A DNA stretch of 64,000 nt, taken from NCBI GenBank assembly GCA_000403495.2, contig KE159799.1, positions 846,782 through 910,781 on the forward strand, in the 5' to 3' direction. Below the pieces are notes generated by a model that was given only the letters and a program-made list of their open reading frames with translations, was not told where the DNA came from and ran no database searches. How positions within the stretch are numbered: the first letter of the stretch is position 1; each line of letters starts with the position of its first letter. The translations under genes were made by a program, and so were the position numbers. Positions 41,128 through 63,311 of this stretch are shown piece by piece. The stretch is from Lachnospiraceae bacterium 10-1. Its GTDB lineage: Bacteria; Bacillota; Clostridia; Lachnospirales; Lachnospiraceae.

Positions 41128-41211
41128 TTAGTTGAACAGGTTCGCAAGCAGGGGGATAAGCTGCATCCCGATCAGTGCCACGCCGCCGCCCGCCATGAGC
41201 TGTTTTATCCC
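41128..41211 (-). pseudogene. maff2: maff2 C-terminal fragment (plus IME B-derived or allelic start)
   Basis: The frame reads GIKQLMAGGGVALIGMQLIP then LLANLFN-stop, the C-terminus of the Maff2 pilin-like membrane protein. The native segment probably begins at the GG core (41193-41194); the preceding GIKQLM codons (41195-41211) belong to the IME end or to another allele, because the intact host version (GMKQFM) lies at 52782-52813. Maff2 encodes a small VirB2-like protein of conjugation systems. Confidence 0.8.
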
Positions 41212-41253
41212 CAATTAGGTGTAAAAACTCTGCTCGATGGCGGGCGGCGGCGT
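41180..41253. repeat. Inverted copy of a maff2 segment at the IME B left end
   Basis: The 17 bases at 41180-41196 recur perfectly in inverse orientation at 41237-41253. With a single-base bulge the match extends to GCTC on the inner side, and looser similarity covers about 35 bases each way around 41214. The repeated piece encodes the Maff2 LMAGGGV region. It is far longer than a recombinase recognition dyad should be. Confidence 0.8.
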
Positions 41254-41302
41254 ACAAAAAATCTATATGGTGTTGTTAAGAGAACCGTCCCGGCGGGACA
41301 GG

Positions 41303-42973
41303 TCAGGCAGTGACCTGTTCCACCTCCGGGATGGGTTTGAGATTAAAATGAATTTCGATAGAAATGTGTCTTGTTTTATTTTCGTCAATGCGCTCATGCA
41401 CGACGATTTCTTTGATTAAGCGGTTGAGGGTGGCTGCGTCCAGCTCTGTGATGTTGGCGTATTCCTGAATGGCTTCCACCCATTGTTTTGCGTCATTGGC
41501 AAGCTGGACTTCATCGGACAGCCGCTTCCTGCCCTCGGACACTTTTGTTTTAAGCTCCGTCTGCTCGGTCTGTGTCCTTTCCAGCATGGTGTTGAAGTTC
41601 TGCTCACTGATACGCCCTGCAATCATATCCTCATAAAGCCGCATTACCATTTTGTCCAGAACCTCAATCCGTTCCTCGTCCCTTGTAAGGGAGCGTTCCA
41701 TTGCTTCCCGCTGTTCCCGCTGCTCGGCTTCACAGGTATTGGTCAGGCGGTCGGCAACCGCTTCCCCGTCCATCAGGGCAGCTCTGGCACATTCCCGTAT
41801 TTTCCGCAGCACATGGCTGTAAAGGGTGTCATAATCAATCCGGTGCTGGGTGCAGTGGTTCTTTCCAAAGGCATTGTAGGTTTTGCAGGAGTATATCCGC
41901 TGGGGATGTTTTGCGTTTGTGTAGCGTATCGTCAGCGACTTCCCACACTCGCCGCATTTTAGCAGTCCGGCAAACAGGCTGATTTCATTGGTCTGCCCCG
42001 GACGCTGGCGGGATTTCAGCTTGTTCTGCACAATGTCAAAACTCATGCGGTCAATCAGCGGTTCATGCTGTCCCTCCACCACAATCCAGTCCTCCGGCTT
42101 CTTTTCCCCAATCGTGCCGATTTTGAAGCGGTAGTCTTTTTTCTGGGAAGCAATCGCCCCGGTGTAGACGGGATTCATCAAAAGGTCTTTGATAACGGAG
42201 AAGTCCCACATATACCGCCCGTTTTCCGGGTCTTTCTTTTCCCATTTGGTGCGGGTATTGCGAAGCCCCCGTTCCCGGTTCCACCATGTGGGGCAGGGGA
42301 TTTTTTCTTCCTCCAGCCGTCTGCGGATATAGTTCGGACCATGACCGTTCAGGGCATATCCGAAAATCAGCCGCACAATCGGGGCGGTTTCCTCGTCAAT
42401 GAGCAGATGGTTTTTGTCCTCCGGGTCTTTCCGATACCCAAACGGGGCAAGACACCCGGTAAACTGTCCTTTCTGCGCTTTCAGAAGATAAGAGGAATGG
42501 ACTTTCTTGGAAATATCCTTGCTGTACATCTCGTTCAGGATATTCTTGAACGGGGCAATATCGTTGTTATCCCGCAGGGTGTCGATACCGTCATTCATGG
42601 CGATATAGCGGACACCGTTTCTTGGGAAAAAGTCCTCAATCAAATGCCCGGTTTGCAGATAGTTCCGCCCCAGTCGGCTGAGGTCTTTCGTGATGACAAG
42701 GTTGATTTGCCTGCGCTCAATGGCTCTCAACATTCTCTGTAAATCAGGACGCTCCATATTAAGACCTGTGAAGCCATCGTCCTGATAGACTGCCACAACC
42801 TCCCATCCCTGCTTTTCGCAGTATTTTTCCAGCATATCACGCTGGTTTGCGATACTGGCACTTTCGCCTTGCAGGTCATCGTCCTTTGACAGTCTGCAAT
42901 AGACCGCTGCACGATAGCCCCCGGCAAGTGCCGAACCGATTGTTCTGTATTCCATTTCGTTCATCATAGCCAT
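41303..42973 (-). CDS. Large serine recombinase of IME B
   Basis: This is a 556-residue enzyme with catalytic motif AAVYCRLSKDDDLQGES near residue 20, a zinc ribbon (LLKCGECGKSLTIRY with HCTQH), and a coiled-coil C-terminus ending KPIPEVEQVTA. It ends about 110 bases from the left edge of the element. The start follows directly on the stop of the 65-residue partner gene (TAAATG). Its likely core is GG within maff2. Confidence 0.93.
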   Translation of the reverse strand: MAMMNEMEYRTIGSALAGGYRAAVYCRLSKDDDLQGESASIANQRDMLEKYCEKQGWEVVAVYQDDGFTGLNMERPDLQRMLRAIERRQINLVITKDLSRLGRNYLQTGHLIEDFFPRNGVRYIAMNDGIDTLRDNNDIAPFKNILNEMYSKDISKKVHSSYLLKAQKGQFTGCLAPFGYRKDPEDKNHLLIDEETAPIVRLIFGYALNGHGPNYIRRRLEEEKIPCPTWWNRERGLRNTRTKWEKKDPENGRYMWDFSVIKDLLMNPVYTGAIASQKKDYRFKIGTIGEKKPEDWIVVEGQHEPLIDRMSFDIVQNKLKSRQRPGQTNEISLFAGLLKCGECGKSLTIRYTNAKHPQRIYSCKTYNAFGKNHCTQHRIDYDTLYSHVLRKIRECARAALMDGEAVADRLTNTCEAEQREQREAMERSLTRDEERIEVLDKMVMRLYEDMIAGRISEQNFNTMLERTQTEQTELKTKVSEGRKRLSDEVQLANDAKQWVEAIQEYANITELDAATLNRLIKEIVVHERIDENKTRHISIEIHFNLKPIPEVEQVTA

Positions 42974-43171
42974 TTACCCACACAATCCAGACGGTATCTG
43001 GCTCTTTTGAACCTCATCTTCATTATACTTCAAATCTTTCTTTTTAGCAAGATATTCTTTTGAATTTGTCTTTCCATATTTCTGGGAAATCAGGCTGACG
43101 AACACATCGGTTGCGTCAAGCTCCCCGTCAAACACAGTAGTCACATGAATCTCTGTTTTGTTTTTTGCCAT
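42974..43171 (-). CDS. 65-residue recombinase partner (TnpW-like) of IME B
   Basis: The gene starts after GGAGGATAACTGCCT. The core TEIHVTTVFDGELDATDVF, then VSLISQKYG, has the same strand-turn-helix arrangement as the small proteins before the other three recombinases. Its stop is contiguous with the recombinase start, implying translational coupling. Function not established; accessory or directionality factor is my inference. Confidence 0.6.
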   Translation of the reverse strand: MAKNKTEIHVTTVFDGELDATDVFVSLISQKYGKTNSKEYLAKKKDLKYNEDEVQKSQIPSGLCG

Positions 43172-43412
43172 AGGCAGTTATCCTCCATACATGAAAATAG
43201 CCAGACAGAGGGTGTCGGCAACGAAGTCCGGCAACGGGCTTCAAAAGACCTTGCAAACAATCTCAATCTGGCGATGGTTACTATTTATATTTTTCTTTTA
43301 TTTTTCTGTTGTTTTGGTTGTCATAGGGGAGAAAAGCCCGCAGTTATGGGATTTTCTCCGGCAACCGGCTCGGCAACGGGATAGCAACAGGGTGTGCAAC
43401 AGGCTGTCATTT

Positions 43413-44807
43413 TCAGAATGGAAGCTCCATCTGTTCTGTGACCTCCACAAAACCGTCCACCATTTTTTCAGACGGGTTGCCGGAGTCCGTTGCCGGGTTT
43501 TCACGCTCCCAGCCCTTTTGTCTGCCATATTCTGAAAACATTCTTGGATTCGGGAAGTACCGCCAGCCGGAAATGCACTGGTTCATAATCTCGTTGATTT
43601 CCCGGATTTCCCATTGCTTCGGTTCGTCAAAGGCATGGTTCAAGGCTTCCTTGTAGAGCTGCTTGGAACAGACCATGCTCCCGGTGTACTTATCAAGATA
43701 CGCCTGTATCATTCCGGCTTTGGTGTCCTCCGGCATAAAATCCCGCTGGTGTTCTTTGAGATACCGCTGCATGGCGGGGCTGAAAGCCAGCTTGAACCTG
43801 CCGCTTCGGTAAATCTCCATCGCTTCCGCCCACATCTGCTCGATATAGGCTCTGGAAGCGGCTTCGTCCTCCAAAATGTGAACCTCGGCTTGCTCCGGGT
43901 ACACCATGACGGGGATAAAGCGGCGGTTGCCGGAACGGTCAAGGGGAAGAAAATCAAGGGCATTGGAAGTGCCGCCAAACACGCACTGACGGGGGCGGTC
44001 TGCCGGGTGGGTTTCATAGGGTATCTTGTAAACCTCTTTCTGCCGGCTTAAAAATGACTTGATTTCCTCAATGCTCTTGGCGTTTGCGGTTGCCATCATT
44101 TCCGACATTTCGATAATCCAGTGACCTTGCAGCTTGCGGTACACATTGTCATCGTCCAGCTTCCGCAAATCATCGGAGAACCACTCGTCCCGGATTGCCA
44201 GCAGACGGAAGAAGGTGGACTTGCCAGCCCCCTGACCGCCTACCAGACAAAGCATGATTTCAAACTTGCACCCCGGCTGAAAGGCTCGTGAGATTGCACC
44301 CAGCAGGAACAGCTTCAACGCTTCATAGGTGTAATCGTCTGCGTCAGCCCCCAGAAAGTGCCGCAGGCAGAAGCGGATTCGCTCTGTCCCGTCCCACACA
44401 AGGGAACTTAAATAATCCCGGATGGGGTGGTACTTGTTTTCATTCGCCACAATCCCGATGGCGTTATCAATCTTTTTCTCATTGGTAAGCCCGTAGGTTT
44501 CTTCCAGATAGAGAAGCAGATACTTCATATCTGTATCGTTCAGGGGGGTGCTTTCCCTGTGGAAGCCGATGGGCTTTATGATGTCCTTGCGGTCAGTCAG
44601 GATATTGTATGCGATAGCCCCGGAAAGCAGCGGGTCACGCTGGAATACAGTCAGGCAGTTCCGTATACTCTGACGGACGCCGCCTTTCTCGGTAGTTTCC
44701 AGCCCCTCCTTGATTTCCTCAATGCTCTGGGGTGGCTGCATGGCGTTCATGGTGTTTTTTAGTTCTTGCTGCGTCTGCGGCGGCAAGCTCTGCCATTCGC
44801 TGTTCAA
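43413..44807 (-). CDS. VapE-family primase-associated helicase/ATPase
   Basis: This 464-residue protein has Walker A LVGGQGAGKSTFFRL near residue 190, preceded by the VapE region KYHPIRDYLSSLVWDGTERI. Later motifs are WIIEMSEM and the arginine-finger-like CVFGGTSNALDFLP. VapE-like proteins act with a DnaG-type primase in phage and island replication. The TTG start overlaps the end of the primase gene, so the two form a replication module that would let the excised IME copy itself. Confidence 0.82.
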   Translation of the reverse strand: MNSEWQSLPPQTQQELKNTMNAMQPPQSIEEIKEGLETTEKGGVRQSIRNCLTVFQRDPLLSGAIAYNILTDRKDIIKPIGFHRESTPLNDTDMKYLLLYLEETYGLTNEKKIDNAIGIVANENKYHPIRDYLSSLVWDGTERIRFCLRHFLGADADDYTYEALKLFLLGAISRAFQPGCKFEIMLCLVGGQGAGKSTFFRLLAIRDEWFSDDLRKLDDDNVYRKLQGHWIIEMSEMMATANAKSIEEIKSFLSRQKEVYKIPYETHPADRPRQCVFGGTSNALDFLPLDRSGNRRFIPVMVYPEQAEVHILEDEAASRAYIEQMWAEAMEIYRSGRFKLAFSPAMQRYLKEHQRDFMPEDTKAGMIQAYLDKYTGSMVCSKQLYKEALNHAFDEPKQWEIREINEIMNQCISGWRYFPNPRMFSEYGRQKGWERENPATDSGNPSEKMVDGFVEVTEQMELPF

Positions 44808-45363
44808 GCTGTATCACATCCTTTCCGTAGTCCGTAATCAAAGCCGCTTTTTCCTCTGTTTCCCCGAACAGCAGCACATCCAGCAGATACTCCACTTGGT
44901 CTTGCTTCTGTAAGGCTTCTATAAACCGGGGATGAAAGGCTTCCTCCGGGGAGTGTGGGGCGTAGTCCGTTCTCCATGCCCGAAGCAGATGGAGATAATC
45001 GGCAAGAATACGGAAGCAGCGGCTCTTTGCTTCTTGAAACTGTTCCTCCGGGGATTTCTGCCAGGGCTTGGGCTTTTTTGCCTTTCCCGGCGGCTTCCAG
45101 TCCTCATAGGAAAGCCCGAAGTCCTGTGCCAGTTGTACGGCGGCTTCTTTCTTTCCCAGCCCATACAGGGCGGCGGCAAAATCAATCACATCCCCATCCG
45201 CACCGCAACCGAAGCAGTGGTAACGCCGATCCAGCTTCATGCTTGGGGTTTTATCGTGATGGAACGGGCAGCAAGCCATCCCGTTCCGCCCTGCATGGAT
45301 TCCATAATGCTCCGCAGCCTGTCTGGTTGTGACGGACTGCTTCACAGCTTCAAATACATTCAA
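44719..45363 (-). CDS. CHC2 zinc-finger primase-like protein
   Basis: This 214-residue protein has a DnaG-type CHC2 zinc finger: ACCPFHHDKTPSM, then YHCFGCGADGDVIDF. I chose the TTG start at 45363, preceded by AAGGAGGGACAGAT; the ATG at 45402 lies inside the upstream terminator. There is no Toprim catalytic domain, so it probably supplies DNA recognition and works with the VapE ATPase or a host enzyme. It overlaps the VapE gene by about 89 bases. Confidence 0.8.
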   Translation of the reverse strand: MNVFEAVKQSVTTRQAAEHYGIHAGRNGMACCPFHHDKTPSMKLDRRYHCFGCGADGDVIDFAAALYGLGKKEAAVQLAQDFGLSYEDWKPPGKAKKPKPWQKSPEEQFQEAKSRCFRILADYLHLLRAWRTDYAPHSPEEAFHPRFIEALQKQDQVEYLLDVLLFGETEEKAALITDYGKDVIQLEQRMAELAAADAARTKKHHERHAATPEH

Positions 45364-45391
45364 ATCTGTCCCTCCTTGAAAAAAAGAAAAA

Positions 45392-45426
45392 ACACCTGAC
45401 ATTCTCTGATTGAAAATGGCAAGTGT
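45392..45426 (-). terminator. Terminator between relaxase and primase genes
   Basis: An imperfect 15-bp stem (12 pairs) between 45392-45406 and 45412-45426 is followed on the minus strand by GTGTTTTTTCTTTTTTT. It lies just 3' of the relaxase stop and 5' of the primase ribosome site. Confidence 0.6.
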
Positions 45427-45429
45427 CTG

Positions 45430-47010
45430 TTAAAGTTCCATATCCTGTTGTTTGCGTTTTGTCTGCGCCGGGATAGTTCTTTTAGCCTTTTTCTCGTCCA
45501 CCTTATCCTGCAAGGCTTCCTTGATGGGCTGTTTCTTGGGTGGCTCTTTACTTTCCTCTGTGCCGGGTGTGGCTTTCCGTACCCAATAACGGATGTCCCG
45601 CAGCTTCTTCAAATCCTCCTGTACCTCGGTCAGCGGTACTTTCAGCTCTGCGATTTCGCTGAGAAGCGTTTCCTGCTCCTCTTGCAGTTCCTTTTGAGTG
45701 CTGTCCTTATCGTCCGGGTGCTTAGCAAGGTAGGCGGCGGCTTTCTCATACCGGGCAACCTCCGGGTGTTCCTGTTTGAATTTTTCCTTTGTTTTCTTAA
45801 AAAATATCTTCTGGTACTTGTCATAGACGGGCTTACATTCCTTGCTGTCTGTCCGGCTGGCAAGAATCCCGTCAATCACTTTGCTGCGGGCTTCCTTTGG
45901 CTTCATCTGATTGCGGTAATCTGCGGCTGATTTCCCGGAAGATTCCAGAAATACTTCTAAGTCCTCCACAGTAGAAAGCCCCTTTTGCCGGAGATAGGAC
46001 AGGGCTTCGCTGACTGCCTTTAAGTCCTGTGAAGTCCCCCGGTTCTGTCCAGCCCTTGTCCAGTCCTTCCGTTCTTCCTTTCGTATCTCCATATACTTCA
46101 TCAGCAGATTTGGAAGAAAGACCGCTTCCTCCGCCGCTTTTTGTGCAAGCAGCTCTTTCCGTTTTTCTCCCAGCTCGGTAATCCAGCCTTTGAGGTTTTG
46201 GATAAGCTGCCGGATGGACTTCATCAGGCGGTTGGCGGCTCTGATTTCCCGGTTCAGATTGCCGATATTCGTCTGGATACCACGTTTTTCCATCTGCCGG
46301 ACAGCAGCACCCTCATGGACAGTGGGGACAATATCAAGCCCCTGTCTGGCATAGGAACGCAAGTCCACACGCTCCGGGCGGTCATTGGCTTCCAGATAGC
46401 GGTTCTGGATGACCTCCCATTCATGCCTCCAGATTTCACAATACTTCTGGTCGTTCCAGTCAACCGTATCTTCCTTGTGGCTTTTCCATCTGCCGGAGGG
46501 AAGTTTTATCCGTTCCCCGTTTTCGTCAAGGTCATAAACCTTGCGGCTCTTGGGAAGCCATTTCCCATGTTCATCCATTGCCCTCATAGTCAGCATGACA
46601 TGGGCGTGGGGATTGTGTCCCGGCGGATGGGGGTCATGGATGGCAAAGTCAGCAATCATGCCTTTGGAAACAAACTGCTGTTTACAAAACTCCCGGACAA
46701 GGACAGCATACTGGTCAGGTGGTATCTCTCTGGGGATGGTAAGCACCCACCGCCTTGCAAGCTGAGAGTTCCATTGTTTCTCCACCGCTTCGGCGGCGTT
46801 CCATAGGGTATTGCGGTCTGCATATTTCTGTGGGGCATTTGCCGGGAGCAGGATTTCATTGTGGACGATACCACGCTTTTCCGGGTAGTGCTTCACTTGC
46901 TGGTCATATTCACAGAAAAGCTTTTCGCCACTCTGGTAAGCAGCGGCGGCAACCGCAGACTGCCGCTGGCTTCGCTGTACAATCGTGATTTCGTTGTGTG
47001 GACAGGGCAT
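45430..47010 (-). CDS. mobA: MobA/MobL-family relaxase of IME B
   Basis: This is a 526-residue relaxase beginning PCPHNEITIVQRSQRQSAVA at ATG 47010 (GAAAGGAGGGACACGAA upstream). The histidine strand is GHNPHAHVMLTMRAMDEHG near residue 140, preceded by IADFAIHD. The C-terminal half is coiled coil, with KEELQ-rich heptads. It is related to the IME A relaxase but clearly divergent. The likely oriT is 1.5 kb upstream at 48504-48567, separated from the gene by the deaminase/MBL cassette. Confidence 0.9.
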   Translation of the reverse strand: MPCPHNEITIVQRSQRQSAVAAAAYQSGEKLFCEYDQQVKHYPEKRGIVHNEILLPANAPQKYADRNTLWNAAEAVEKQWNSQLARRWVLTIPREIPPDQYAVLVREFCKQQFVSKGMIADFAIHDPHPPGHNPHAHVMLTMRAMDEHGKWLPKSRKVYDLDENGERIKLPSGRWKSHKEDTVDWNDQKYCEIWRHEWEVIQNRYLEANDRPERVDLRSYARQGLDIVPTVHEGAAVRQMEKRGIQTNIGNLNREIRAANRLMKSIRQLIQNLKGWITELGEKRKELLAQKAAEEAVFLPNLLMKYMEIRKEERKDWTRAGQNRGTSQDLKAVSEALSYLRQKGLSTVEDLEVFLESSGKSAADYRNQMKPKEARSKVIDGILASRTDSKECKPVYDKYQKIFFKKTKEKFKQEHPEVARYEKAAAYLAKHPDDKDSTQKELQEEQETLLSEIAELKVPLTEVQEDLKKLRDIRYWVRKATPGTEESKEPPKKQPIKEALQDKVDEKKAKRTIPAQTKRKQQDMEL

Positions 47011-47079
47011 TTCGTGTCCCTCCTTTCTATGCTTGGTGGATGGGGTGGCGTTTTGCCACCTCATTTTGGGCAGAAAAAA

Positions 47080-47108
47080 AGCAGGAGACCTTTTTCAGAT
47101 TTCCTGCT
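47080..47108 (-). terminator. Terminator of the MBL/deaminase cassette
   Basis: AGCAGGA (47080-47086) pairs with TCCTGCT (47102-47108), followed on the minus strand by seven T. The stem and the 35 bases 5' of it (GCCGCC... TAA on the minus strand) resemble the terminator and gene end at 59522-59600 of the tet module in IME C. This suggests the two cargo cassettes share an ancestral landing site. Confidence 0.65.
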
Positions 47109-47191
47109 CGGTATGCCGCTGGGCGGCGGGTATTTAGTTGTAAAAGTTCGGGGCAAGTTGACCCGATGTAGAAAAATAGCAAAATGGAATT

Positions 47192-47884
47192 TCAAGCTTC
47201 TACTGACAACAAATAAGCAAGCAAATCCTCTTTACTAAGAGGTTCGCAATGACTTAGTATGCAATATTTACAATCGATAGATTGAATAGTCTGAACCAAA
47301 GAATACAGTTTATCCTTATCCATATATCCATTATTAAAGAAATCTTCACTCGTTGAATCTCCTAAAAACAAAACTTTTTCTTCTGGCACATAAACACAAG
47401 TAGTATCTTCTGAATGTGGCGAAATTGTATGAAAGATTTGTGCAGTAATGCCACCTAAATCCAAAGTCATTTTATCCGAGAAAGTTATGTCGGACAGCAC
47501 AATACTTAATTTGTCCTGTCCGCAATATTCTTTTCTAAAATGAATATCTTCCTTTTTCAGAATTTCGATATAATTGAGGTTTTTTGCCTGTTCTTGCTGG
47601 TCTTTGAGGAACTCATTTGTTTTGCCATAGGCAATACTTATTCCATTGATTGCGTGCATACCAAAGGTGTGGTCATAATGCCAATGTGTAATAACCGTAA
47701 AATCCGGCTTGTTAAACTGTTCCGCTTCGATTGCCCTGTAAAAATCCTGAACATGAGATGCCGAATATCCAGCATCAATCGCCAGAGAAATTTTATCTCC
47801 TTTAAGATAAGCTAACATCGGTCTGTCCACTTCGGGGGCGTGTTCTAAAAAATAAATTCTGTTGGTTAATTTATTTAATCCCAT
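47192..47884 (-). CDS. Metallo-beta-lactamase-fold hydrolase (cargo)
   Basis: This 230-residue protein starts at ATG 47884 (GAAAGGTGGGACAAAA upstream). It has the MBL zinc-ligand motif THWHYDHTFG near residue 72 and later ligands in TISPHSEDTTCVYV and LFLGDSTSED. The fold spans many hydrolases, so the substrate is unknown; the sequence does not look like a classical beta-lactamase. It overlaps the deaminase gene by ten bases, so both are made together. A role in detoxifying an antibiotic or nucleoside compound is plausible but unproven. Confidence 0.75.
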   Translation of the reverse strand: MGLNKLTNRIYFLEHAPEVDRPMLAYLKGDKISLAIDAGYSASHVQDFYRAIEAEQFNKPDFTVITHWHYDHTFGMHAINGISIAYGKTNEFLKDQQEQAKNLNYIEILKKEDIHFRKEYCGQDKLSIVLSDITFSDKMTLDLGGITAQIFHTISPHSEDTTCVYVPEEKVLFLGDSTSEDFFNNGYMDKDKLYSLVQTIQSIDCKYCILSHCEPLSKEDLLAYLLSVEA

Positions 47885-48258
47885 TTTTTGTCCCACCTTT
47901 CAGGTAATAATTCTTTCAATGTAACCTTTTGGTCATTGTTAATGGCAACTACTGTATTTTCATTATCCAGATCTAACTGTGAAATCAATTCTCTGCATCT
48001 TCCACAAGGCGACAGGATGCTGCCATCTTCATAAACAGATACAATTCTTTTGATTTTCGTTTCTCCATGTTTCAGCATTTCGGCAATAGCTGCCTGTTCT
48101 GCACAAATTCCAATTGAACAGGGCACATCAATACAAATGCCAGTATAAACAATACCACTTACTGTTTCTAAAGCACAAGCCACATGACCTGCTTTACCAT
48201 TTTTCTTTAAATTTATGTTTTTTACCGTACACAAGGCAATATCATATAAGTCTTTCAT
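47875..48258 (-). CDS. Cytidine/blasticidin-S deaminase-family protein (cargo)
   Basis: This 127-residue protein carries the deaminase zinc site: CAEQAAIAEM (C-A-E) and SPCGRCRELISQ (PCxxC), with the C-terminal VTLKELLPERW. Both blasticidin-S deaminases and small cytidine deaminases share these motifs and the length; CRELIS followed by ELLP is reminiscent of the blasticidin enzymes. ATG 48258 follows AAGGAAGATAGTG. A TATAAT-like -10 lies at 48293-48298. First gene of a two-gene cassette with the MBL protein. Confidence 0.78.
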   Translation of the reverse strand: MKDLYDIALCTVKNINLKKNGKAGHVACALETVSGIVYTGICIDVPCSIGICAEQAAIAEMLKHGETKIKRIVSVYEDGSILSPCGRCRELISQLDLDNENTVVAINNDQKVTLKELLPERWDKKWD

Positions 48259-48339
48259 CACTATCTTCCTTACTTAAATTGTTATCAACATCATTATACT
48301 GTATTGCCTATCGAAAAGATAGCATATTTTATGAAACTT

Positions 48340-56517: not shown

Positions 56518-56618
56518 CTCCTGTCTGTGGCTTCTTGTTACGCAGTTAAAACGGCATTTTCGGGGGTAAAGGATAAATGTATCGGCTACCTGTTGAGGGC
56601 GGTCAAAAAAGCCTTGAT

Positions 56619-57005
56619 TTACGGGCTTCTTTCATAGCCTAAATGCGTAGAAAGGTGGTATCTTTTCCGCTGTCTGTCGGCTTCTTTCCGGCGGCGCACT
56701 CTTGCGGCGCAATCCGGGCAGTATTTCCCCCGGTTTGACTTGGGGAGAAAATACCCGCCGCACTCGGTACAGCGTTTCCTGTCTGCCCGGTGCAAAAGGG
56801 CGGCTTCCAGTTTCCCGTCCAATGGCAGTACGGCGGCTATGAACCAGCGGCACAAGAGAGAATAGCTGATACTCTGGACGCATACGCAAGGCTCGCCGTT
56901 ATCCAGCAAGATACAGTTGCCGTTATCGTAGTTGCAGCACTCATGCACAAGGCGGCGGGCGGCTCTGTGTTGTTGATAGTCCATGTAGGGGCGTTTACCG
57001 TTCAT
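56619..57005 (-). CDS. Cys-rich zinc-finger protein
   Basis: This is a 128-residue protein with two cysteine clusters: HECCNYDNGNCILL with CVCVQS, and RCTECGGYFLPKSNRGKYCP then CAARVRRRKEADRQ. The C-terminal finger is like that in the protein at 5625-6539. ATG 57005 overlaps the relaxase stop by 11 bases and follows GGGAAAGGGACGGG. Such proteins regularly trail MOB relaxases in clostridial IMEs; the role is unknown. Confidence 0.65.
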   Translation of the reverse strand: MNGKRPYMDYQQHRAARRLVHECCNYDNGNCILLDNGEPCVCVQSISYSLLCRWFIAAVLPLDGKLEAALLHRADRKRCTECGGYFLPKSNRGKYCPDCAARVRRRKEADRQRKRYHLSTHLGYERSP

Positions 57006-58635
57006 TTTCCCGTCCCTTTCCCCGTTCCGGCTCACGGCGTAAGATTTTGTCAAGATTGCTTTTCACGGTCTGCAATTCCCGGACGTTCTCTTTCTTCTCC
57101 CGGTACTCGTTGTAAAGGGCGTTTTTCTCTTTGGTAAGCTGCTCAATCTCCGTTTGTAAGGTCTTGGAAGCTGGCAGTTTGGCGATTCCCTGTGCCTTGA
57201 AATACCGGGCGGCAGATTCGGAAATGATAAACTCGCTTTCGTGCTGCTCCCGGTAGGCTCTCCGGGCTTTCTCCGTTTTCTGCGCCCGCAATCCGTCACG
57301 GGCTGGCTTGGTCTTGATATACGCCAATAGCTGTTTCTGCAAGTCTTTTTTCTCCCGCAAAGTGCTTTCCACGGCTTTCAGTTTCCCGGTGGTTTCGTGC
57401 AGTTCTGTATTGGCGGCGGCAAGGGCAGCTTCCAGTTCCTCCGGGGAAGAAAAGCCGGATTCCTCGTAAACGCTCATGGTAGCCGCCATTTGCTTCAAGT
57501 TGTGCAAGGTCGCCCACTTTTCATAGCCCCGCCCCTTGCCCTCGGCTTTCTTGGCGGCTATGTCTACCATGCGCTGTACGCTGTCCTGTTTCGGGGCGTT
57601 TATAGTGGCTTTGCCACGCTGTAAGCGGTCTTTTATGCTGCGGGGGTATTCCTGTTTGGGTGCGGGCGTTTCGGCGGCTCTGACGGCGTTCTGTGCGTTT
57701 ATGGTGAGTGCTTCCAGTACGGCGGCACGGTCAAAATCATCACCTAATTTCCGGGCGGTGATGGGCTTCGTCCTATCCGGCGTGAGATATGACAATCTCC
57801 CCCGGCTCTCTTTGACGGTCACGCCCTCCCGGAGCAGCAGAGAGGAAAAGTCGTCAAAGGTGGCAGCGGCGGCAAGGGCTTTCCGTATGGTCTGCCTTAG
57901 CTTTTCCTTGTCGGTTTCAAACTTGGTCTGTTTGGGCGGCTCTCCTGTGGCGGCAAGGGTAGCGTTCTCTTTATCCAGTGCGGCTTGTCCTTTCCGTTTC
58001 GCCCAATACTCACGCTCGGTAACTCGGTTCTTGCTCCCATGCAATAAGTCAATCTGATAGAGATTTTCCCGGTGGCACATCTCCATGACTTCCGCTTTGA
58101 AGTATTCCATAGCTGCGTCTGTACAGCGGTGCTTGCAGCCCTCTCTTGTGTCGGCTGGTCTTTCCATGTAGGGCAATAGCGGCACTTCCGCAATCCGCAA
58201 AGAATTGATTACGATATGCACATGGATATTTCCGCTGTGGTTATGCCCGTCCGGGTGGGTGCATACAAGGGCTTGGTGTCCGGGGAAATGCGTCTTGCAA
58301 AATTCCTCGCCCAACGCTTGCGCCCGGTCTACGGTCAAGCCGTTGTCTGGTGCGTCACGGGGGTCAAAGGAAATAATATAGTGGTGGCTCTTTACGTCCT
58401 CCCGTTTCTGGTTCTTGCCGTATTTGAGATTAGAACGCATACAGGCGATTGCAAAATCTTCCTCACCGCAATTCAGAGAGGAAATGCGGTAATCGTCACG
58501 GAGAACAAGCCGCCCGTTTCCGTCCAGTGTGGGCTTCATGGTAAACTCGTCATGCTCAAAGGTTAGGTACTGTTCAGCCGCCCCATAGTCGGCATTTTTA
58601 GAGCTGATATGTTTGAACGTTGCCAACGGCTTCAC
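56995..58635 (-). CDS. mobA: MOB-family relaxase of IME C
   Basis: This 546-residue relaxase has the Relaxase-domain opening AVFKH-like ATFKHISSKNADYGAAEQYL. The segment SHHYIISFDPRDAPDNGLT follows, and the metal-binding histidines lie in NHSGNIHVHIVINSLR near residue 133. The C-terminal 200 residues are coiled coil. Pattern and the associated MobC point to the MOBP-type relaxases of Tn1549-related elements. It overlaps mobC by 38 bases. The oriT lies just upstream of mobC at about 59026-59073. Confidence 0.9.
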   Translation of the reverse strand: MKPLATFKHISSKNADYGAAEQYLTFEHDEFTMKPTLDGNGRLVLRDDYRISSLNCGEEDFAIACMRSNLKYGKNQKREDVKSHHYIISFDPRDAPDNGLTVDRAQALGEEFCKTHFPGHQALVCTHPDGHNHSGNIHVHIVINSLRIAEVPLLPYMERPADTREGCKHRCTDAAMEYFKAEVMEMCHRENLYQIDLLHGSKNRVTEREYWAKRKGQAALDKENATLAATGEPPKQTKFETDKEKLRQTIRKALAAAATFDDFSSLLLREGVTVKESRGRLSYLTPDRTKPITARKLGDDFDRAAVLEALTINAQNAVRAAETPAPKQEYPRSIKDRLQRGKATINAPKQDSVQRMVDIAAKKAEGKGRGYEKWATLHNLKQMAATMSVYEESGFSSPEELEAALAAANTELHETTGKLKAVESTLREKKDLQKQLLAYIKTKPARDGLRAQKTEKARRAYREQHESEFIISESAARYFKAQGIAKLPASKTLQTEIEQLTKEKNALYNEYREKKENVRELQTVKSNLDKILRREPERGKGRENER

Positions 58636-58996
58636 CTACTTTCTGCAAGACTTCAAACTTCAAGGCGGCAAGCTCCGCTGTGGCGGCTCGTACCTCTTGG
58701 GAGAGGGCGTTATAAGGTGCGCCGTACTCGTTCAGACAGCGGGCAATCTGGTTCAAGTTGCCGCCGATTTTCCCGTATTCGGCTGTGAGTTTTCCAACGG
58801 CAGAGAGTAATTCATCATTGACCGGGGAAACGGTAATGACCGGGCGTATGCTTGATTTGATAAGGGCTTGCCGGATAAACTCGGCTTGGCTCATTTTGCA
58901 GAGGGTGACACGCTCGGAAAACTCGGCGTATTCTTCCTCGGTCAAGCGTGTCTTGATTACCCGGTGACGGTGTGGCGTGTTGTATCTTTTCATGGC
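58598..58996 (-). CDS. mobC: MobC relaxosome accessory protein
   Basis: This is a 132-residue protein. The N-terminal ribbon-helix-helix reads VIKTRLTEEEYAEFSERVTL, then SQAEFIRQALI, and the C-terminal MobC motif is YGKIGGNLNQIARCLNEYG. I chose ATG 58996, preceded by GAAAGGAGATTCACAGCC; the open frame to 59092 crosses the oriT hairpins. MobC binds oriT and helps the relaxase load. Confidence 0.88.
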   Translation of the reverse strand, partial: AMKRYNTPHRHRVIKTRLTEEEYAEFSERVTLCKMSQAEFIRQALIKSSIRPVITVSPVNDELLSAVGKLTAEYGKIGGNLNQIARCLNEYGAPYNALSQEVRAATAELAALKFEVLQKVGEAVGNVQTYQL

Positions 58997-59025
58997 TGTG
59001 AATCTCCTTTCGTGGGTGGATTTTT

Positions 59026-59073
59026 TCAAGCGGCGCAAGCCGCAAAAAGGCGGGCTTGGGGTGGCAACCCCAA
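59026..59073. other. oriT: Candidate oriT of IME C
   Basis: Just upstream of mobC lie two hairpins: GCGGCgcaaGCCGC (from about 59032) and TTGGGGT (59056-59062) with ACCCCAA (59067-59073). A GC-rich stem followed by a CTTGTTGGGGT-type stem directly before mobC is the usual oriT layout for this relaxase type. The nick is not assignable by eye. Confidence 0.6.
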
Positions 59074-59521
59074 CAAGATTCCCATAGGACAAAATGAGCC
59101 GGTAGGCGAAATTTGGTACTGTGGTAGAATCTTGCTCTAAGAAACTGCGCTGTGTGGTCTGTTCGCTTACTATCCGGCTATTGGCGGCTGGTTTGTTGCG
59201 TTCCGGCGAAAATATCTTATGGAATTTTCTGATACCCTCGACGGACAGGGCGGGGATTTTGCCAACTCGGCGGCGGTATTTCTCCCCCTACTACCTACAA
59301 CACCACGCAAAGCAAAAATGACGGTGATTTGCGGAAATTTCCCCTCATTTCTTACAAAACCACACAAGCCCGGATAGGCGGGAATTTTGAGAAATTTCTT
59401 CATTTTCCTTTCATTCCCCACACCACCGAAAATTGAAAACTGCCAAACAAAGAGCGTGTCATGTTTCCCTTTTCGTGGGGCAATACGGCGGTTTTTCAAA
59501 AACGCCGAAAATAAACGCAAA
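59074..59521. other. Leader between oriT and tet module, no gene
   Basis: About 450 bases with open frames on both strands but no ribosome site, conserved motif or codon pattern typical of the neighbours. The minus-strand frame at 59170-59520 lacks any recognisable domain. The region is probably the leading segment adjoining oriT. Confidence 0.4.
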
Positions 59522-59554
59522 AAAACAGGAAACCTTTTTATGATTTCCTGTTTT
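59522..59554 (-). terminator. Terminator of the tet module
   Basis: AAAACAGGAAA (59522-59532) pairs perfectly with TTTCCTGTTTT (59544-59554). On the minus strand it ends in a run of T. It resembles the hairpin at 47080-47108, including flanking bases. Confidence 0.75.
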
Positions 59555-59579
59555 GGTGTGCCGTTCTATGTGGCGGCGG

Positions 59580-59804
59580 TTATTCAGTTTTGGGGTATGG
59601 CTGTTCATCAAAGCGGAACTGGAACAGGGCAGCGATAAGCCGCCGTTTAATGTTGTCCTCTGTATCTTTGTTGACGTGTCCGTTTTCAAGGGAAGCAATT
59701 CGGATTCGCTTGCTGTAATGCCGTAAAACCTCGTCTACGGCTTCCGGTTCTCCATTGGTCGCTCTGACAATAATTTCATAAGGAATAAGATTAGGATTCT
59801 TCAT
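59580..59804 (-). CDS. HTH_16 regulator, Tn916 orf8-like
   Basis: This is a 74-residue protein: PNLIPYEIIVRATNGEPEAV, then DEVLRHYSKRIRIASLENGH and IKRRLIAALFQFRF. This is the HTH_16 pattern of the small regulator that follows tet(M) in Tn916-like elements. ATG 59804 overlaps the sigma-like gene by 14 bases. In Tn916 the homologous genes link tetracycline-induced transcription to transfer functions. Confidence 0.78.
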   Translation of the reverse strand: MKNPNLIPYEIIVRATNGEPEAVDEVLRHYSKRIRIASLENGHVNKDTEDNIKRRLIAALFQFRFDEQPYPKTE

Positions 59805-60324
59805 GCGAAAACACCTCCATTTTTTCTTGTAACATTTGTAAAGCACTGTGTATGTGATGCCATGCCGTACTCCGGCAACGTCCATACATTTCACCAATTT
59901 CCTGTTGCGTGTAATGACCGAAAAAGTAGAGATAAATGATTTCTCTTTTTTTCTCTGGCAAGGATAACAGCGCAGCGGCAAGCTCTCCATTGGTGAGGAT
60001 AACCGTCTGACCACATATGGTGATGGGGTACTGCTCATAGGGGTCTATGAAATATTTATTAGACGTACTGAACGGGTAAAATTTTTCTTCTGTAAGATAT
60101 TCAAAAGATATTTCTCTTTGCCGTTTCCTGCTTCTGTCACGCCATGAGTTGAGAGTTGCATAGCGTATCACCACTCTACAAAAAGCGTTAAAAGTATACA
60201 TAATGTGTTCTTTGTATGCTTCGGTGCAAGCTGAAAGCCTTTGTTTTTTATTTGCTGTATTTGTCCGCTCTTTATTCAAAATAGGTTCTCCTTTTTTATC
60301 AGATTTTTTCTCCATATAATTCAC
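59791..60324 (-). CDS. Sigma-70 region-4-like regulator, Tn916 orf7-like
   Basis: This is a 177-residue protein with C-terminal sigma region 4: GELAAALLSLPEKKREIIYL, then YFFGHYTQQEIGEMYGRCRS and TAWHHIHSALQMLQ. It starts six bases after the tet stop, so it is transcribed with it. In Tn916 the counterpart sits in the same place downstream of tet(M) and helps activate mobility genes. The N-terminus (SRKRQREISFEYL) is basic. Confidence 0.82.
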   Translation of the reverse strand: MNYMEKKSDKKGEPILNKERTNTANKKQRLSACTEAYKEHIMYTFNAFCRVVIRYATLNSWRDRSRKRQREISFEYLTEEKFYPFSTSNKYFIDPYEQYPITICGQTVILTNGELAAALLSLPEKKREIIYLYFFGHYTQQEIGEMYGRCRSTAWHHIHSALQMLQEKMEVFSHEES

Positions 60325-60330
60325 AAAAAC

Positions 60331-62250
60331 TTACATTGTCTTTTGAAACATATACCGAATCTTATCTAACCGACTGTTAGGGCGGCGTGGCTGCGATACA
60401 AACTCCCCAGAAGTTTCTTTATACCCTTTTAATTCTGTAAGACAAACACTTCTCCCGTTTGTATAAAAATTTAAATCATTTTTATATTCATTGATACAGC
60501 GGGCGGGGATTTCTCCTTTAAAAATAACCTCATCATTTTCAAGTACAACCGATTCAATCACTGCACAATATTTTGGCACATCATTGTAAGCCCGTGAAAG
60601 ATATTCCTGTGGAGCAAAAAGGGTAAAGGAAAGGTATGGCTCCAAAACCTGTGTTCCTGCTTTTTTCAATGCCTGTTCCAATACGACAGGAGCAAGGAAG
60701 CGAAAATCTGCGGGGGTACTAACCGGGCTGTAATAAACTCCATAGTCAAAACAAATGCTGCAATCTGTCACTTCCCAGCCATATAAGCCTTGCTCCATTC
60801 CATAATGCACACCCTCCATGACGGCATTTTGAAAACTTTGGTTCAAATAGCCAAGAGATACCTTGCTTTTATACTGGGTTCCGCTTCCGATAGGGAGTGG
60901 TGTTACAGTTAAACCAATAGACGCCCAAAATGGATTTGGTGGTACTTCAATATGAATCGTGTAGGCTGCCTTTTTTAACGGTCTTTCCAGATAAATAACC
61001 GTAGGCTCTTTCATAGCCACTTTTACATGATACTTTTCTTCCAGCAATGAACAAATAACCTCTAATTGCACCTTTCCTAAAAAAGACAGAATAATCTCAC
61101 GGGTGGCAGTATCAATTTCAAAGTGCAAAAGTGGGTCTGTATCGGCAATTTCTATGAGAGCATTCAGCAAGGCTTCTCTTTGTTCTGGCTCTTGTGGCTC
61201 AACGGTTGTCCGAAGTAAAGGCATAGGATTGTCAATCCATGCTTTGCGAGGTAAAAGTTCTTCATTTCCCAAAATGTCATATAATTTTAAAGTATCATCG
61301 GATAAGACAACAATTTCTCCCTGACAGGCATGGTCTGCCGAAACAATTTCGCCATTTGCCGGAATGTACATTTCTGTAATCTTTACCTTTTTCTTTTTTG
61401 ACAGCAGAAGTGTATCTCGTAAATGGAGCGTTCCATGATATAGGCGTAAGTAGGAAAGACGTTTTTTCCCTTCTGTATACTCAACCTTAAAAACATACCC
61501 ACATAATTCAGACTGATTATTTTTTGTTTCTGTAACAAAAGTTTCAGTAATTACCTCAATCAATTTTTCTGTTCCTAAATTGTCTTTTGCGCTTCCATGA
61601 TATACAGGAAACAAAGAACAACATCTGGTTCTCTGGCACTTTTCAAGTTGTAATTCCTGTATGTCCAATGAATCCTCTGAAATATATTTTTCTAATAGTT
61701 CATCATTCCCGGAAATAACGGAATCCCATTTATCCAAATCAGCAATATCAGTAATATCTATTTTGGGCGATAAGATAACCTCTTGCATGACGATTATATC
61801 ACTGGTAAGTTTTTCCCTGATGTTTTGGTAAACACGCCGTAAATCAATTCCGTTTTGGTCTATCTTATTTACATAGATAATTGTCGGAATGTTCATTTTC
61901 TGAAGTGCATGGAATAATATTCGGGTCTGTGCCTGTACACCGTCTTTTGCCGAAACAACTAAAACAGCTCCGTCAAGGACAGATAAAGAACGATATACTT
62001 CGGCTAAAAAATCCATATGACCGGGAGTGTCCACGATATTGATTTTATAACCATTCCAGCAAAAAGAAGTAACTGCCGTCTGAATGGTAATTCCCCGCCG
62101 CTGCTCTAAAACCATAGTGTCTGTTCTTGTGGTTCCTTTATCTACACTTCCTTGTTCTGCAATCGCTCCACTGGTGTACAACAGGCTTTCTGTTAAAGTT
62201 GTTTTTCCCGCGTCTACATGGGCAAGAATGCCAATATTGATTATTTTCAT
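60331..62250 (-). CDS. tet: Tetracycline resistance ribosomal protection protein
   Basis: This 639-residue EF-G-like GTPase removes tetracycline from the ribosome. GTPase motifs are [13 protein letters not shown] (residues 10-22), DTPGHMDF near 75 and NKID near 128. The C-terminal loop motif [11 protein letters not shown] and the ending [16 protein letters not shown] are hallmarks of the Tet(M)/(O)/(W)/(32) group. Length is exactly that of the group. By memory of those sequences the N-terminal half is nearest Tet(32) and the ending nearer Tet(W)/(M); only an alignment can settle the class or a mosaic. The ribosome site is GGGAGGACAATCAC. Confidence 0.93.
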
Positions 62251-62288
62251 GTGATTGTCCTCCCTTTACAAGCCCAAAAGGGCATAAA

Positions 62289-62325
62289 AATCCCCAGCAG
62301 TAAAATACTTTTACCACTGGGGATT
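62289..62325 (-). terminator. Attenuator hairpin upstream of tet
   Basis: AATCCCCAG (62289-62297) pairs with CTGGGGATT (62317-62325), extended by GTAAAA (62300-62305) with TTTTAC (62309-62314). On the minus strand TTTTTATGCC follows. It overlaps the end of a leader peptide, as in Tn916 tet(M) attenuation. Confidence 0.8.
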
Positions 62326-62355
62326 ACAGTTTGCGGACATACACATATACAGCAT
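62311..62355 (-). CDS. tet leader peptide (14 residues)
   Basis: ATG 62355 to TAA 62311 encodes MLYMCMSANCNPQW. It corresponds to the short orf12-type leader before tet(M) in Tn916. Its stop lies in the attenuator loop region. Translation of the leader by tetracycline-stalled ribosomes is thought to prevent terminator formation in Tn916; the same mechanism is inferred here. Confidence 0.7.
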   Translation of the reverse strand: MLYMCMSANCNPQW

Positions 62356-62411
62356 ACACCTGCTGGTGATTGCTGTTCTTTTTCAGATATGTCAAAATTG
62401 ATAAGGCAAAA

Positions 62412-62509
62412 GTATTCTTAAATTGGGTACAAAAAACCAAGCCCCCTTATTTAGGGACATTCAAAATTCTTTGAACCCACTATTTGATTGAAGTTTTATT
62501 TAAGAATAC
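62412..62509 (-). promoter_or_regulatory. Long-range inverted repeat in the tet leader RNA
   Basis: GTATTCTTAAAT (62412-62423) and ATTTAAGAATAC (62498-62509) are perfect 12-base complements 74 bases apart. The inner region includes the CCAAGCCCCC...TTAGGG segment seen in Tn916. This folds the 5' part of the tet transcript and overlaps the seven-codon leader. Confidence 0.7.
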
Positions 62510-62519
62510 CTTGCCGCAT
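62496..62519 (-). CDS. Seven-residue leader peptide MRQGILK
   Basis: ATG 62519 follows AAAAAAGGAGTAAAAAAT and encodes MRQGILK before TAA. The same peptide and ribosome site begin the tet(M) leader of Tn916-like elements. It lies on the 5' arm of the long inverted repeat, so its translation could control folding. Confidence 0.65.
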   Translation of the reverse strand: MRQGILK

Positions 62520-62548
62520 ATTTTTTACTCCTTTTTTGGAATGAAGCT

Positions 62549-62577
62549 ATTATAGCACATCAATTTTAGAAAAGAAA
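62549..62577 (-). promoter_or_regulatory. tet promoter
   Basis: On the minus strand TATAAT (62554-62549) is preceded at 17 bases by TTTCTT (62577-62572). The surrounding bases (GTGCTATAATAGC, then AAAAAAGGAG) match the Tn916 Ptet region as I remember it. Confidence 0.65.
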
Positions 62578-62651
62578 GTAGAAAAAGGAAAAATACTTTG
62601 TACACCATAAGAAAGATGTAATGAGTGAGAGGTTTCGTAGTCATCGACATT

Positions 62652-62953
62652 GTGGAAAAATCTAAACTTTTGGATTTTTCCACAAATCCAAACTTAGAAG
62701 AAATCCAAACTTTTCTCTGTAAATCCTTTATTCAAGGCATTTTCTGATAAAAAAGTTTGGATTTTGTTTTGTACTTCTCTTGTCAGAAATGAGAATAAAT
62801 TGATTGAAACAGAGCTAAATAGCAATGTTTTACGCATTTTGTCATAATTGGAGTATTGTACTTTGTGAAACGAAATCCAAACTTTTTCCGGCAAGAATCC
62901 CCAATTATCAAGCTGTTTTCAGAAAAGTTTGGATTTTATATAAGTTTGGATTT
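62652..62953. repeat. oriV: Cluster of AAATCCAAACTT iterons, candidate origin of IME C
   Basis: The 12-mer AAATCCAAACTT occurs at 62684-62695, 62701-62712 and 62873-62884, with one change at 62658-62669. Its complement AAGTTTGGATTT occurs at 62753-62764, 62925-62936 and 62942-62953. A perfect 11-bp stem (62652-62662 with 62673-62683) sits at the left border. The area is AT-rich with no convincing gene. Both the repeats and neighbouring DnaA-box-like sites suggest a replication origin. Confidence 0.75.
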
Positions 62954-62960
62954 GTGGGAA

Positions 62961-63064
62961 TGTGTATAACTGGCTGCCTTATGAAGTTGTGGGTAACTCT
63001 GTTTGCAGGACGTGGGAAAGCTGCATTTTAGCTTTTCCATGTGCTGTGAATAGAGTTATCCATG
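62961..63064. other. DnaA-box-like sites next to the iterons
   Basis: TGTGTATAA (62961-62969) is an exact reverse complement of TTATACACA. TGTGGGTAA (62988-62996) and TTATCCATG (63056-63064) are near matches. A GGAAAGCtgcattttaGCTTTTCC stem lies between them. Together with the iterons this resembles a theta-type plasmid origin. Confidence 0.55.
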
Positions 63065-63170
63065 ACGGAATAGCCTGTTATGCACATTTCCATAATGCTT
63101 GTCTTTTGGTCTTTGGTTCGGAATAGTGTGGTACTGGCAGTCTATTTCTTGTTTTCGGTTACTTGCTTCT

Positions 63171-63311
63171 TTACCGTACATGAGCATTTGCACCAGGGTT
63201 GTCATTGCCATACCCTTCGAGCAAATTGATCACTCCCCATACGCCCAGGCCAGCGCCCAGCGCGATTACAAGTACCTTCAAAGTGTCGATTGCTGCTGTA
63301 AAAAATGCCAT
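63171..63311 (-). pseudogene. maff2: maff2 N-terminal fragment
   Basis: ATG 63311 opens AFFTAAIDTLKVLVIALGAG, then LGVWGVINLLEGYGNDNPGA, the N-terminus and first membrane helix of Maff2. After PGA the frame enters IME C (NAHVR-stop). Joining to the fragments at 52782-52813 and 41128-41194 gives a continuous 71-residue Maff2. As it stands no functional protein is made, so the ICE should be defective for the step needing this VirB2-like protein. Confidence 0.88.

What the first reader, a model, noticed from the sequence alone, without database searches (positions are those of the whole stretch)
41128..63311. Two mobilizable elements inserted about 24 bp apart in one maff2 gene; removing both restores the frame
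Seen: maff2 is in three pieces (63189-63311, 52782-52813, 41128-41194). IME C joins at core AA with inverted TGCTCATGT ends, IME B at core GG. Splicing gives ...DNPGA-KSQGMKQFM-AGGGVALIG..., a 71-residue uninterrupted Maff2. Known: serine recombinases leave only a two-base core. Inference: two different recombinases use neighbouring sites in the same conjugation gene, so the gene is a hot spot and the insertions switch conjugation off reversibly.
Basis: partly seen in the sequence, partly recalled or inferred. Interest (0 to 1): 0.85.

Follow-up and report, generated by a model that had tools for sequence, protein, structure and literature searches.

The report
Crowded landing site in conjugation gene
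A 71-codon gene of a bacterial conjugative element is cut by two mobile elements 18 bases apart, and in relatives the same 26-base stretch is also used by two kinds of self-splicing intron, so this spot is a shared landing site for unrelated mobile DNA.

Summary
maff2 is in three pieces, separated by two mobilizable elements with different serine recombinases (36% identical). Site 2 (element B) has core CA, not GG, so the sites are 18 bp apart, not 24. They are the first two bases of invariant codons Lys42 and Gln48.

IMEs in maff2, two maff2 sites, and the "excise and restore conjugation" idea are already published. Not found in print by my searches: double occupancy is common (29 of 58 maff2 insertions among the 80 nearest site-1 relatives in named genomes); group II introns (11) and group I introns (2) interrupt the same 26 bp; all 56 classified interruptions fall there; and off-target sites of the site-1 recombinase favour positions that maff2's protein fixes (right arm clear, left arm not significant alone). 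Most interrupted pieces stay constrained, but three copies have lost their N-terminus. That insertion switches conjugation off reversibly is plausible but untested.

The parts
63189..63311 (-). maff2 5' piece, codons 1-41
   Evidence: PF12750 match 1-43; read directly
63187..63188 (-). site-1 core AA, left junction of element C
   Evidence: base before AA varies with host, element constant after it
52811..63186 (-). element C, IME_Rho_tet-like (about 10.4 kb with one core)
   Evidence: recombinase, relaxase, MobC-like, RepA_N, tet gene; same right-end type as 58 maff2 site-1 insertions in named genomes
52809..52810 (-). site-1 core AA, right junction of element C (first two bases of Lys42 codon)
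52791..52810 (-). maff2 middle piece, Lys42 to Gln48.2, both cores included (20 nt)
   Evidence: intact copies in A2/A3
52791..52792 (-). site-2 core CA, left junction of element B (first two bases of Gln48 codon)
41203..52790 (-). element B, mobilizable element (about 11.6 kb with one core)
   Evidence: recombinase, MobA/MobL (MobQ) relaxase, VapE-like helicase, primase-like protein
41201..41202 (-). site-2 core CA, right junction of element B
41128..41200 (-). maff2 3' piece
   Evidence: PF12750 match 45-70, the first few positions being element end that imitates maff2
52893..54515 (-). site-1 large serine recombinase (540 aa)
   Evidence: serine recombinase matches; relatives; stop 82 bp from the right junction
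54839..55711 (-). DnaC-like ATPase (element C)
55753..56517 (-). RepA_N replication initiator-like protein (element C)
   Evidence: PF06970
56995..58635 (-). MobA/VirD2-like relaxase (element C)
   Evidence: PF03432
58598..59092 (-). MobA/MobC-like accessory mobilization protein (element C)
   Evidence: weak NCBIfam matches below their cut-offs
60331..62250 (-). tetracycline-resistance ribosomal-protection protein (element C)
   Evidence: NF033148, 1243.7 bits over cut-off 1100; 80.2% nt to tet(O/32/O)
41303..42973 (-). site-2 large serine recombinase (556 aa)
43413..44807 (-). VapE-like helicase (element B)
   Evidence: PF05272
45430..47064 (-). MobA/MobL (MobQ) relaxase (element B)
   Evidence: PF03389; NF041496
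40243..41112 (-). VirB6/TrbL-like protein of the host ICE, next gene after maff2
   Evidence: PF19478
38632..39054 (-). PrgI (VirB3-like) of the host ICE
   Evidence: PF12666
36231..38756 (-). VirB4-like ATPase (TraG P-loop domain) of the host ICE
   Evidence: PF19044
63656..64000 (-). 3' part of the VirD4/TraG coupling protein gene just upstream of maff2 (continues beyond the window)
   Evidence: L036:5438-6664, PF02534

Best explanation
maff2 of this ICE is a shared landing site. Two integrative and mobilizable elements, each with its own large serine recombinase, entered one maff2 copy at two separate attB sites whose crossover dinucleotides are the first two bases of Lys42 (AA) and Gln48 (CA), 18 bp apart; the stretch between them is presumably an arm of both attB sites. 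The sites are dependable because the encoded residues are invariant: the site-1 recombinase favours an imperfectly palindromic DNA pattern largely at positions that protein conservation keeps fixed, so nearly any ICE of the family offers the target whatever its codon usage. Other relatives are invaded at the same spot by self-splicing group II and group I introns. Inferred, not shown: the insertion stops Maff2 production from this copy until the elements excise (IMEs) or, for introns, splicing removes the block.
For: 56 of 56 classified interruptions in two genome samples lie between codons 39 and 48: 34 at site 1 (1 only probable), 9 at site 2, 11 group II, 2 group I, beside 92 intact strong copies (recount). 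12 of the 13 Maff2 pieces from a third collection, IMG/VR, show the same junction types; the thirteenth, L281, starts at the edge of its stretch. Recombinase family matches site: 10 of 10 site-1 breaks with a recombinase next door have a C-type (79-100%), 10 of 11 site-2 breaks a B-type (7 at 80-100%, 3 at 42-49%); the eleventh, L093, gave an ambiguous fragment there but is 50% B-like. K42 and Q48 invariant in 24 of 24 and 26 of 26 intact copies. Off-target right arms: information sits mainly where maff2 is invariant, Spearman -0.73, p 0.0004; both arms -0.61, p 0.0002. Double occupancy recurs. Introns: Rfam. Constraint: dN/dS 0.096-0.144 in interrupted 5' pieces, 0 of 52 with a stop. An ICE with 90-92% identical aligned flanks has intact maff2 (L012).
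Against: No excision, circular form or transfer data. The left arm alone misses significance (Spearman -0.49, p 0.066); there the wobble of Pro39 (-7) carries 0.43 bits, invariant Gly40.1 (-6) only 0.05, and the favoured bases at -2 and -15 differ from maff2. maff2 is not the only target: 22 of 80 and 30 of 51 site-1 ends lie elsewhere. The hot segment is not the most conserved 27-bp window of the gene (rank 51 of 177), so conservation alone does not explain the choice. Three interrupted copies (L077, L078, L079) have lost their N-terminal codons and were left out of the stop and dN/dS counts. 3' pieces next to site-1 elements show dN/dS 0.123 against 0.072 for intact copies, compatible with some decay. 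Site-1 and site-2 elements show no clear preference for co-occurring.
Confidence: 0.85

Rival explanations
1. Reversible conjugation switch: the elements keep Maff2 (a transfer-module membrane protein) off and excise when conjugation is induced, so that the ICE and the elements transfer and re-insert.
For: maff2 lies between virD4 and virB6; 52 of 55 readable interrupted 5' pieces (L121 aside) are complete and stop-free, dN/dS far below 1; published as a hypothesis (PMC5357655 sec. 25; PMC5704250 sec. 13); introns at the same spot would let the gene be expressed.
Against: No expression or excision data; ICESp2905 with a maff2 insertion was seen to transfer whole (PMC5704250), so Maff2 may be dispensable or excision transient; the window ICE appears to have other insertions (snf2-like ORF).
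Confidence: 0.35
2. Dead-end parasitism: the elements inactivate ICEs whose maff2 decays; they persist by moving with other helpers.
For: Three interrupted copies have lost their N-terminus; 3' pieces slightly less constrained (0.123 vs 0.072); many site-1 ends outside maff2; [quoted passage not shown]
Against: 0 of 52 complete 5' pieces with a stop, dN/dS far below 1.
Confidence: 0.35
3. One composite element entered once: C and B travel as a unit with the middle piece between them.
For: Order C-middle-B is the same in window, G041 and G294.
Against: Middle pieces differ between copies; B-type elements occur without C and with group II introns; C-type elements occur alone in 29 of 58 maff2 copies.
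Confidence: 0.05
4. Chance or assembly artefact.
For: Draft assembly; G028:C48 shows a site-1 left flank that is not maff2 (L312).
Against: Same junctions in several collections and many genera.
Confidence: 0.01

Closest known systems
Serine-integrase IMEs inserted in maff2 of Tn5252-superfamily ICEs (IME_ScoC232_maff2_site1, IMESp2907; PMC5357655, PMC5704250)
   Same: Serine integrase, relaxase, insertion inside maff2, two internal sites used by two integrase families, gene disruption, proposed excision on induction.
   Different: Here both sites are filled in one gene copy; crossover dinucleotides, 18-bp spacing and codon register are defined. Whether the streptococcal sites S1/S2 equal these sites could not be checked (figure not held).
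IME_Rho_tet family (PMC12904643, 2026)
   Same: tet ribosomal-protection gene, relaxase, MobC, serine recombinase, about 10.7 kb, 3' boundary 81-90 bp after the recombinase stop (82 here), MAFF2 as the most frequent identified target (116 of 256).
   Different: In the parts of the paper seen (abstract, passages, section 15, Discussion) I saw no second element or intron in the same maff2; the tet gene here is 80.2% to tet(O/32/O).
Two IMEs in two sites of one traG (IME_Sco1050_traG_site1/site2, PMC5704250 section 13)
   Same: Two IMEs at two sites of one conjugation gene in one ICE.
   Different: There in traG; here two sites 18 bp apart in a 71-codon gene.
Tn7 TnsD / attTn7 in glmS (PMC2918618, passages)
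   Same: Target read at codon positions fixed by protein conservation, variation confined to wobble bases.
   Different: Transposon target selector outside the insertion point, not a serine recombinase crossing over inside the codon.
Group II intron Ll.LtrB in a conjugative relaxase gene (PMC6003770, search listing and start of abstract only)
   Same: Self-splicing intron inside a conjugation gene.
   Different: Here in maff2, next to IME sites and sometimes together with an IME.

Membership tests
Integrative and mobilizable element (IME) | Own integrase/recombinase | tested here: met
   Serine recombinases 41303-42973 and 52893-54515
Integrative and mobilizable element (IME) | Own relaxase but no mating-pore genes | tested here: met
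   Relaxases 45430-47064 and 56995-58635; no VirB4/VirB6/VirD4 among the ORFs scanned inside either element (not every small ORF was scanned)
Integrative and mobilizable element (IME) | Excises as a circle and is mobilized in trans | not testable with these tools
   No reads or bench data
IME_Rho_tet | tet ribosomal-protection gene | tested here: met
   NF033148
[quoted passage not shown]
   82 bp by coordinates; paper value
IME_Rho_tet | 21-bp terminal inverted repeats of the published motif | tested here: inconclusive
   Inverted TGCTCATGT ends seen; the motif is in a figure that is not held
IME_Rho_tet | Recombinase/relaxase within the published clusters | not tested
   R. hominis A2-183 reference sequence was not compared
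maff2-targeting serine-integrase IME | Insertion inside maff2 of a conjugative element | tested here: met
   ICE genes virD4, virB6, prgI, virB4 around it
maff2-targeting serine-integrase IME | Host ICE belongs to the Tn5252 superfamily | not tested
   Gene order fits, but no comparison with Tn5252 itself was run
Group II / group I intron (relatives, not the window) | Catalytic RNA core in sense with maff2 | tested here: met
   RF02004 in 10 loci, RF00028 in 2; splicing not testable; window has no Rfam match

The most novel reading that the evidence does not exclude
Codons 39-48 of maff2 form a convergent docking site for four unrelated kinds of mobile element (two serine-recombinase IME lineages, group II introns, group I introns), singly or stacked, because the DNA there is pinned by invariant residues; DNA excision and RNA splicing are two alternative ways to keep the transfer gene usable, and the set of occupants gates when the ICE can conjugate.
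Probability: 0.3. Interest if true: 0.85.

Novelty: new variant of a known kind. Interest (0 to 1): 0.6.

Why it matters
It turns a published list of 'IMEs in maff2' into a defined, testable site: exact crossover points, an 18-bp spacing that both recombinases must tolerate, a recombinase whose off-target choices lean on bases fixed by the encoded protein, and intron invasions of the same stretch. It helps explain how elements that spread tetracycline-resistance genes find a target in many related ICEs, and it gives two natural experiments (splicing introns against non-splicing IMEs) to ask whether Maff2 is needed for conjugation.

Tried and rejected
Composite co-travel of C and B: rejected because middle pieces differ and each kind of element occurs alone. 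Preference of the two elements for each other: not supported; among 10 site-2 left ends in 144 genomes 4 had site 1 filled, 1 an intron, 4 sat in otherwise uninterrupted maff2, 1 lay outside maff2, against 27 site-1 breaks among 84 maff2 copies. Maff2 as a VirB2/PrgF-like pilin: left open; AlphaFold2 gives a confident two-helix hairpin (helices 2-36 and 39-70, mean pLDDT 91.9) but no PDB match at E<=0.001 (best 0.59), no PDB sequence relative (best E 0.85), and PMC12102498 (passages) says T4SS classes of Gram-positive bacteria lack virB2 homologues. Conservation as sole reason for the hot spot: rejected (rank 51 of 177). Introns in the window itself: none at gathering threshold.

Rows dropped before counts: contig-edge pieces L080, L081; edge-cut 3' or long pieces G132:C65, G029:C181, G404:C118, G288:C72; five weak full-length Maff2 matches and G048; G464 and the G524:C1 match; G000, G063 and G104 rows already counted. 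3' pieces are not counted as copies. For stops and dN/dS: L077, L078, L079 (matches start at codon 18-23; one search shows their N-terminal codons replaced by other sequence), L080, L081, L121 and L003 (replaced by the window piece) were left out; 24 fetched intact copies were the reference. L003 and L004 were printed in the wrong orientation; the window junctions were read. The motif recount gave 29 site 1, 11 group II, 9 site 2, 2 group I; L067, L069, L074, L077 (site 1) and L121 (probable site 1) were added by eye. L299 was moved from off-target to 'group II plus site 1', and one near-duplicate was dropped, leaving 29 left arms. L146, L155, L164 and the four CTTCATACC cases were classed by eye.
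Full report
1. What is there. On the minus strand the ICE reads virD4 (ends at 63656), maff2 5' piece (63311-63189), element C, a 20-nt maff2 middle piece (52810-52791), element B, maff2 3' piece (41202-41128), virB6, a SpoVG/LPD26 protein, prgI and virB4. Element C holds a serine recombinase, DnaC-like ATPase, RepA_N protein, relaxase, a weakly matched MobC-like protein and a tetracycline ribosomal-protection gene. Element B holds a serine recombinase, VapE-like helicase, primase-like protein and MobA/MobL relaxase. The two recombinases are 36% identical. Because a resistance gene is inside element C, I compared the pieces apart and joined nothing.

2. Exact junctions. I read junctions of 43 five-prime and 29 three-prime pieces from 144 related genomes (window rows re-read) and of 15 and 16 more from a class-wide sample of 391. 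Site 1: the base before AA varies with the host allele (Ala41 wobble) and the base after it too (Lys42 wobble), so the core is AA. Both cores are the first two bases of codons whose residues are invariant in 24 of 24 and 26 of 26 intact copies. The crossovers are 18 bp apart.

3. Intact copies. All 50 intact copies in A2 and A3 have the intervening stretch without gaps; 49 read KSQG[MIV]KQ, and L035 reads KNTGLKQ. The closest, L012 in the same genus, sits in an ICE whose aligned flanks are 90.4% (437 bases upstream) and 92.0% (1201 bases downstream) identical to the window's, and 84.6% for the 5' piece itself: a near relative with neither element.

4. Hot spot. By tally, recounted, there are 92 strong intact copies (43 and 49) and 56 classified interruptions: 34 at site 1 (one, L121, only probable), 9 whose first break is site 2, 11 group II introns and 2 group I introns; 2 further pieces end at contig edges. 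All 56 lie between Pro39 and Gln48, 26 bp. The two samples share at least 6 genomes. In IMG/VR (46 Maff2 loci) 12 of 13 pieces show the same junction types; the thirteenth (L281) starts at the edge of its stretch. The recombinase next to a break predicts its site: of 45 three-prime entries, 10 of 10 at site 1 are C-like; 10 of 11 at site 2 are B-like, the eleventh (L093) an ambiguous fragment that is 50% B-like; 17 had no readable neighbour and 7 intron loci had no recombinase neighbour. Of 8 B-recombinase relatives at 80% or more in 144 genomes, 6 end 95-99 bp from a maff2 3' match; the two in G021 do not.

5. Double occupancy is common. A scan of named genomes with recombinase C found 457 relatives and kept the best 80, mostly Lachnospiraceae and other Clostridia by record title. 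58 of 80 sit in maff2: 29 alone, 28 followed 18 bp later by a site-2 element and 1 (L155) by a site-2 element in inverted orientation; 22 lie elsewhere. This is a sample of close relatives, not a random one. In the 144 relatives, site-1 plus site-2 doubles occur in the window, G041, G028 and G064, and in G294 of the class sample; a group II intron plus site 2 in G029 and apparently in one IMG/VR contig (L274/L279); a group II intron plus site 1 in G017 (L299). In G028:C48 the site-1 left end on the same contig is not in maff2 (L312), so that copy is rearranged. Middle pieces differ between doubles, so they probably arose separately. Co-occurrence is not clearly above independence.

6. Introns. 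Group II introns (RF02004 in 10 loci, RF00029 in 7 of them; an RT protein with an HNH match checked in L042 and L043, below cut-off in L043) enter the Pro39 codon 8 bp upstream of site 1; group I introns (RF00028, under 0.5 kb) enter about the Gly45/codon-46 boundary. 10 of 10 group II copies with an Rfam match and 2 of 2 group I copies are in sense with maff2, as splicing would need; the eleventh group II copy (L073) is cut by a contig edge. The three group II copies from IMG/VR were recognised by junction motif only. The window has no Rfam match.

7. Why this spot. For 22 off-target site-1 insertions the core is AA in 22 of 22; in the right arm, information is mainly at positions invariant in maff2 and low at variable ones (Spearman -0.73, p 0.0004 without the core). 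I then predicted the same for the left arm: with 29 off-target left ends the trend is there but not significant (-0.49, p 0.066); the Pro39 wobble (-7) carries 0.43 bits, invariant Gly40.1 (-6) only 0.05, and the favoured bases at -2 and -15 do not match maff2. Both arms together give -0.61, p 0.0002. The preferred off-target bases are partly complementary between the arms (at 5, 8, 9, 11 and 12 bp either side of the core), i.e. an imperfect palindrome on a three-base step. Among 51 site-1 left ends in 144 genomes, 21 are in maff2 (one behind a group II intron) and 30 elsewhere, so maff2 is a frequent but not the only target. A precedent for reading non-wobble positions is TnsD/attTn7 (PMC2918618, passages).

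8. Function. Complete interrupted 5' pieces remain constrained (dN/dS 0.096 site 1, 0.131 site 2, 0.096 group II, 0.144 group I, against 0.080 intact; 0 of 52 with a stop), with mild relaxation in 3' pieces beside site-1 elements (0.123 against 0.072). Three interrupted copies (L077, L078, L079) lack the N-terminal codons and are evidence of decay. The dN/dS values are pairwise to the nearest intact copy and include time before insertion. Maff2 is predicted as a two-helix hairpin whose turn lies at residues 37-38; its biochemical role is unknown.

9. Literature. Of 8 papers holding the whole word maff2 in the held library, I read passages or sections of five (PMC12904643, PMC5357655, PMC5704250, PMC13214566, PMC9674144) and saw three as listings only (PMC12323340, PMC8442362, PMC8754150). 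IMEs in maff2, two sites, two integrase families and the excise-to-conjugate idea are in print. Introns in bacterial maff2 and double insertion in one maff2 were not found; subscription papers and supplementary tables were not searched.

10. Verdict. Observation mostly right with corrected site-2 core and spacing; hot spot confirmed and widened; the reversible switch remains a published, untested hypothesis.

Noticed in passing
window 41180-41196 and 41237-41253: A 17-nt perfect inverted repeat links maff2 beside site 2 with the end of element B; its core GCCGCCGCCCGCCA is present near the right end of 13 of 23 site-2 elements. It could form a hairpin or an antisense stretch against maff2 mRNA; unexplained.
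   Followed up: partly
window 7836-16412 and 2369-4342: A 2858-aa SNF2/ResIII-type ORF stops shortly after its helicase match, a few kb from a 657-aa serine recombinase: probably another element in the snf2-like gene, a known IME target.
   Followed up: no
window 19738-23939: Serine recombinase next to a MobA/MobL relaxase suggests a further mobilizable element in the same ICE.
   Followed up: no
L155, about 4700: Site-2 element in inverted orientation right after a site-1 element and a middle piece.
   Followed up: partly
L317, L001, L002 (own genome): Three further maff2 5' pieces of the own genome are also cut at site 1.
   Followed up: partly
L113/L114 (G214): Two site-1 halves of maff2 lie 63 kb apart with an intact maff2 between them: possibly an ICE nested inside.
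   Followed up: no
L062, L070, L088, L121: Divergent site-1-like junctions that suggest further recombinase lineages at or near site 1.
   Followed up: no
L077, L078, L079: Interrupted maff2 copies whose first 17-22 codons are replaced by other sequence.
   Followed up: partly
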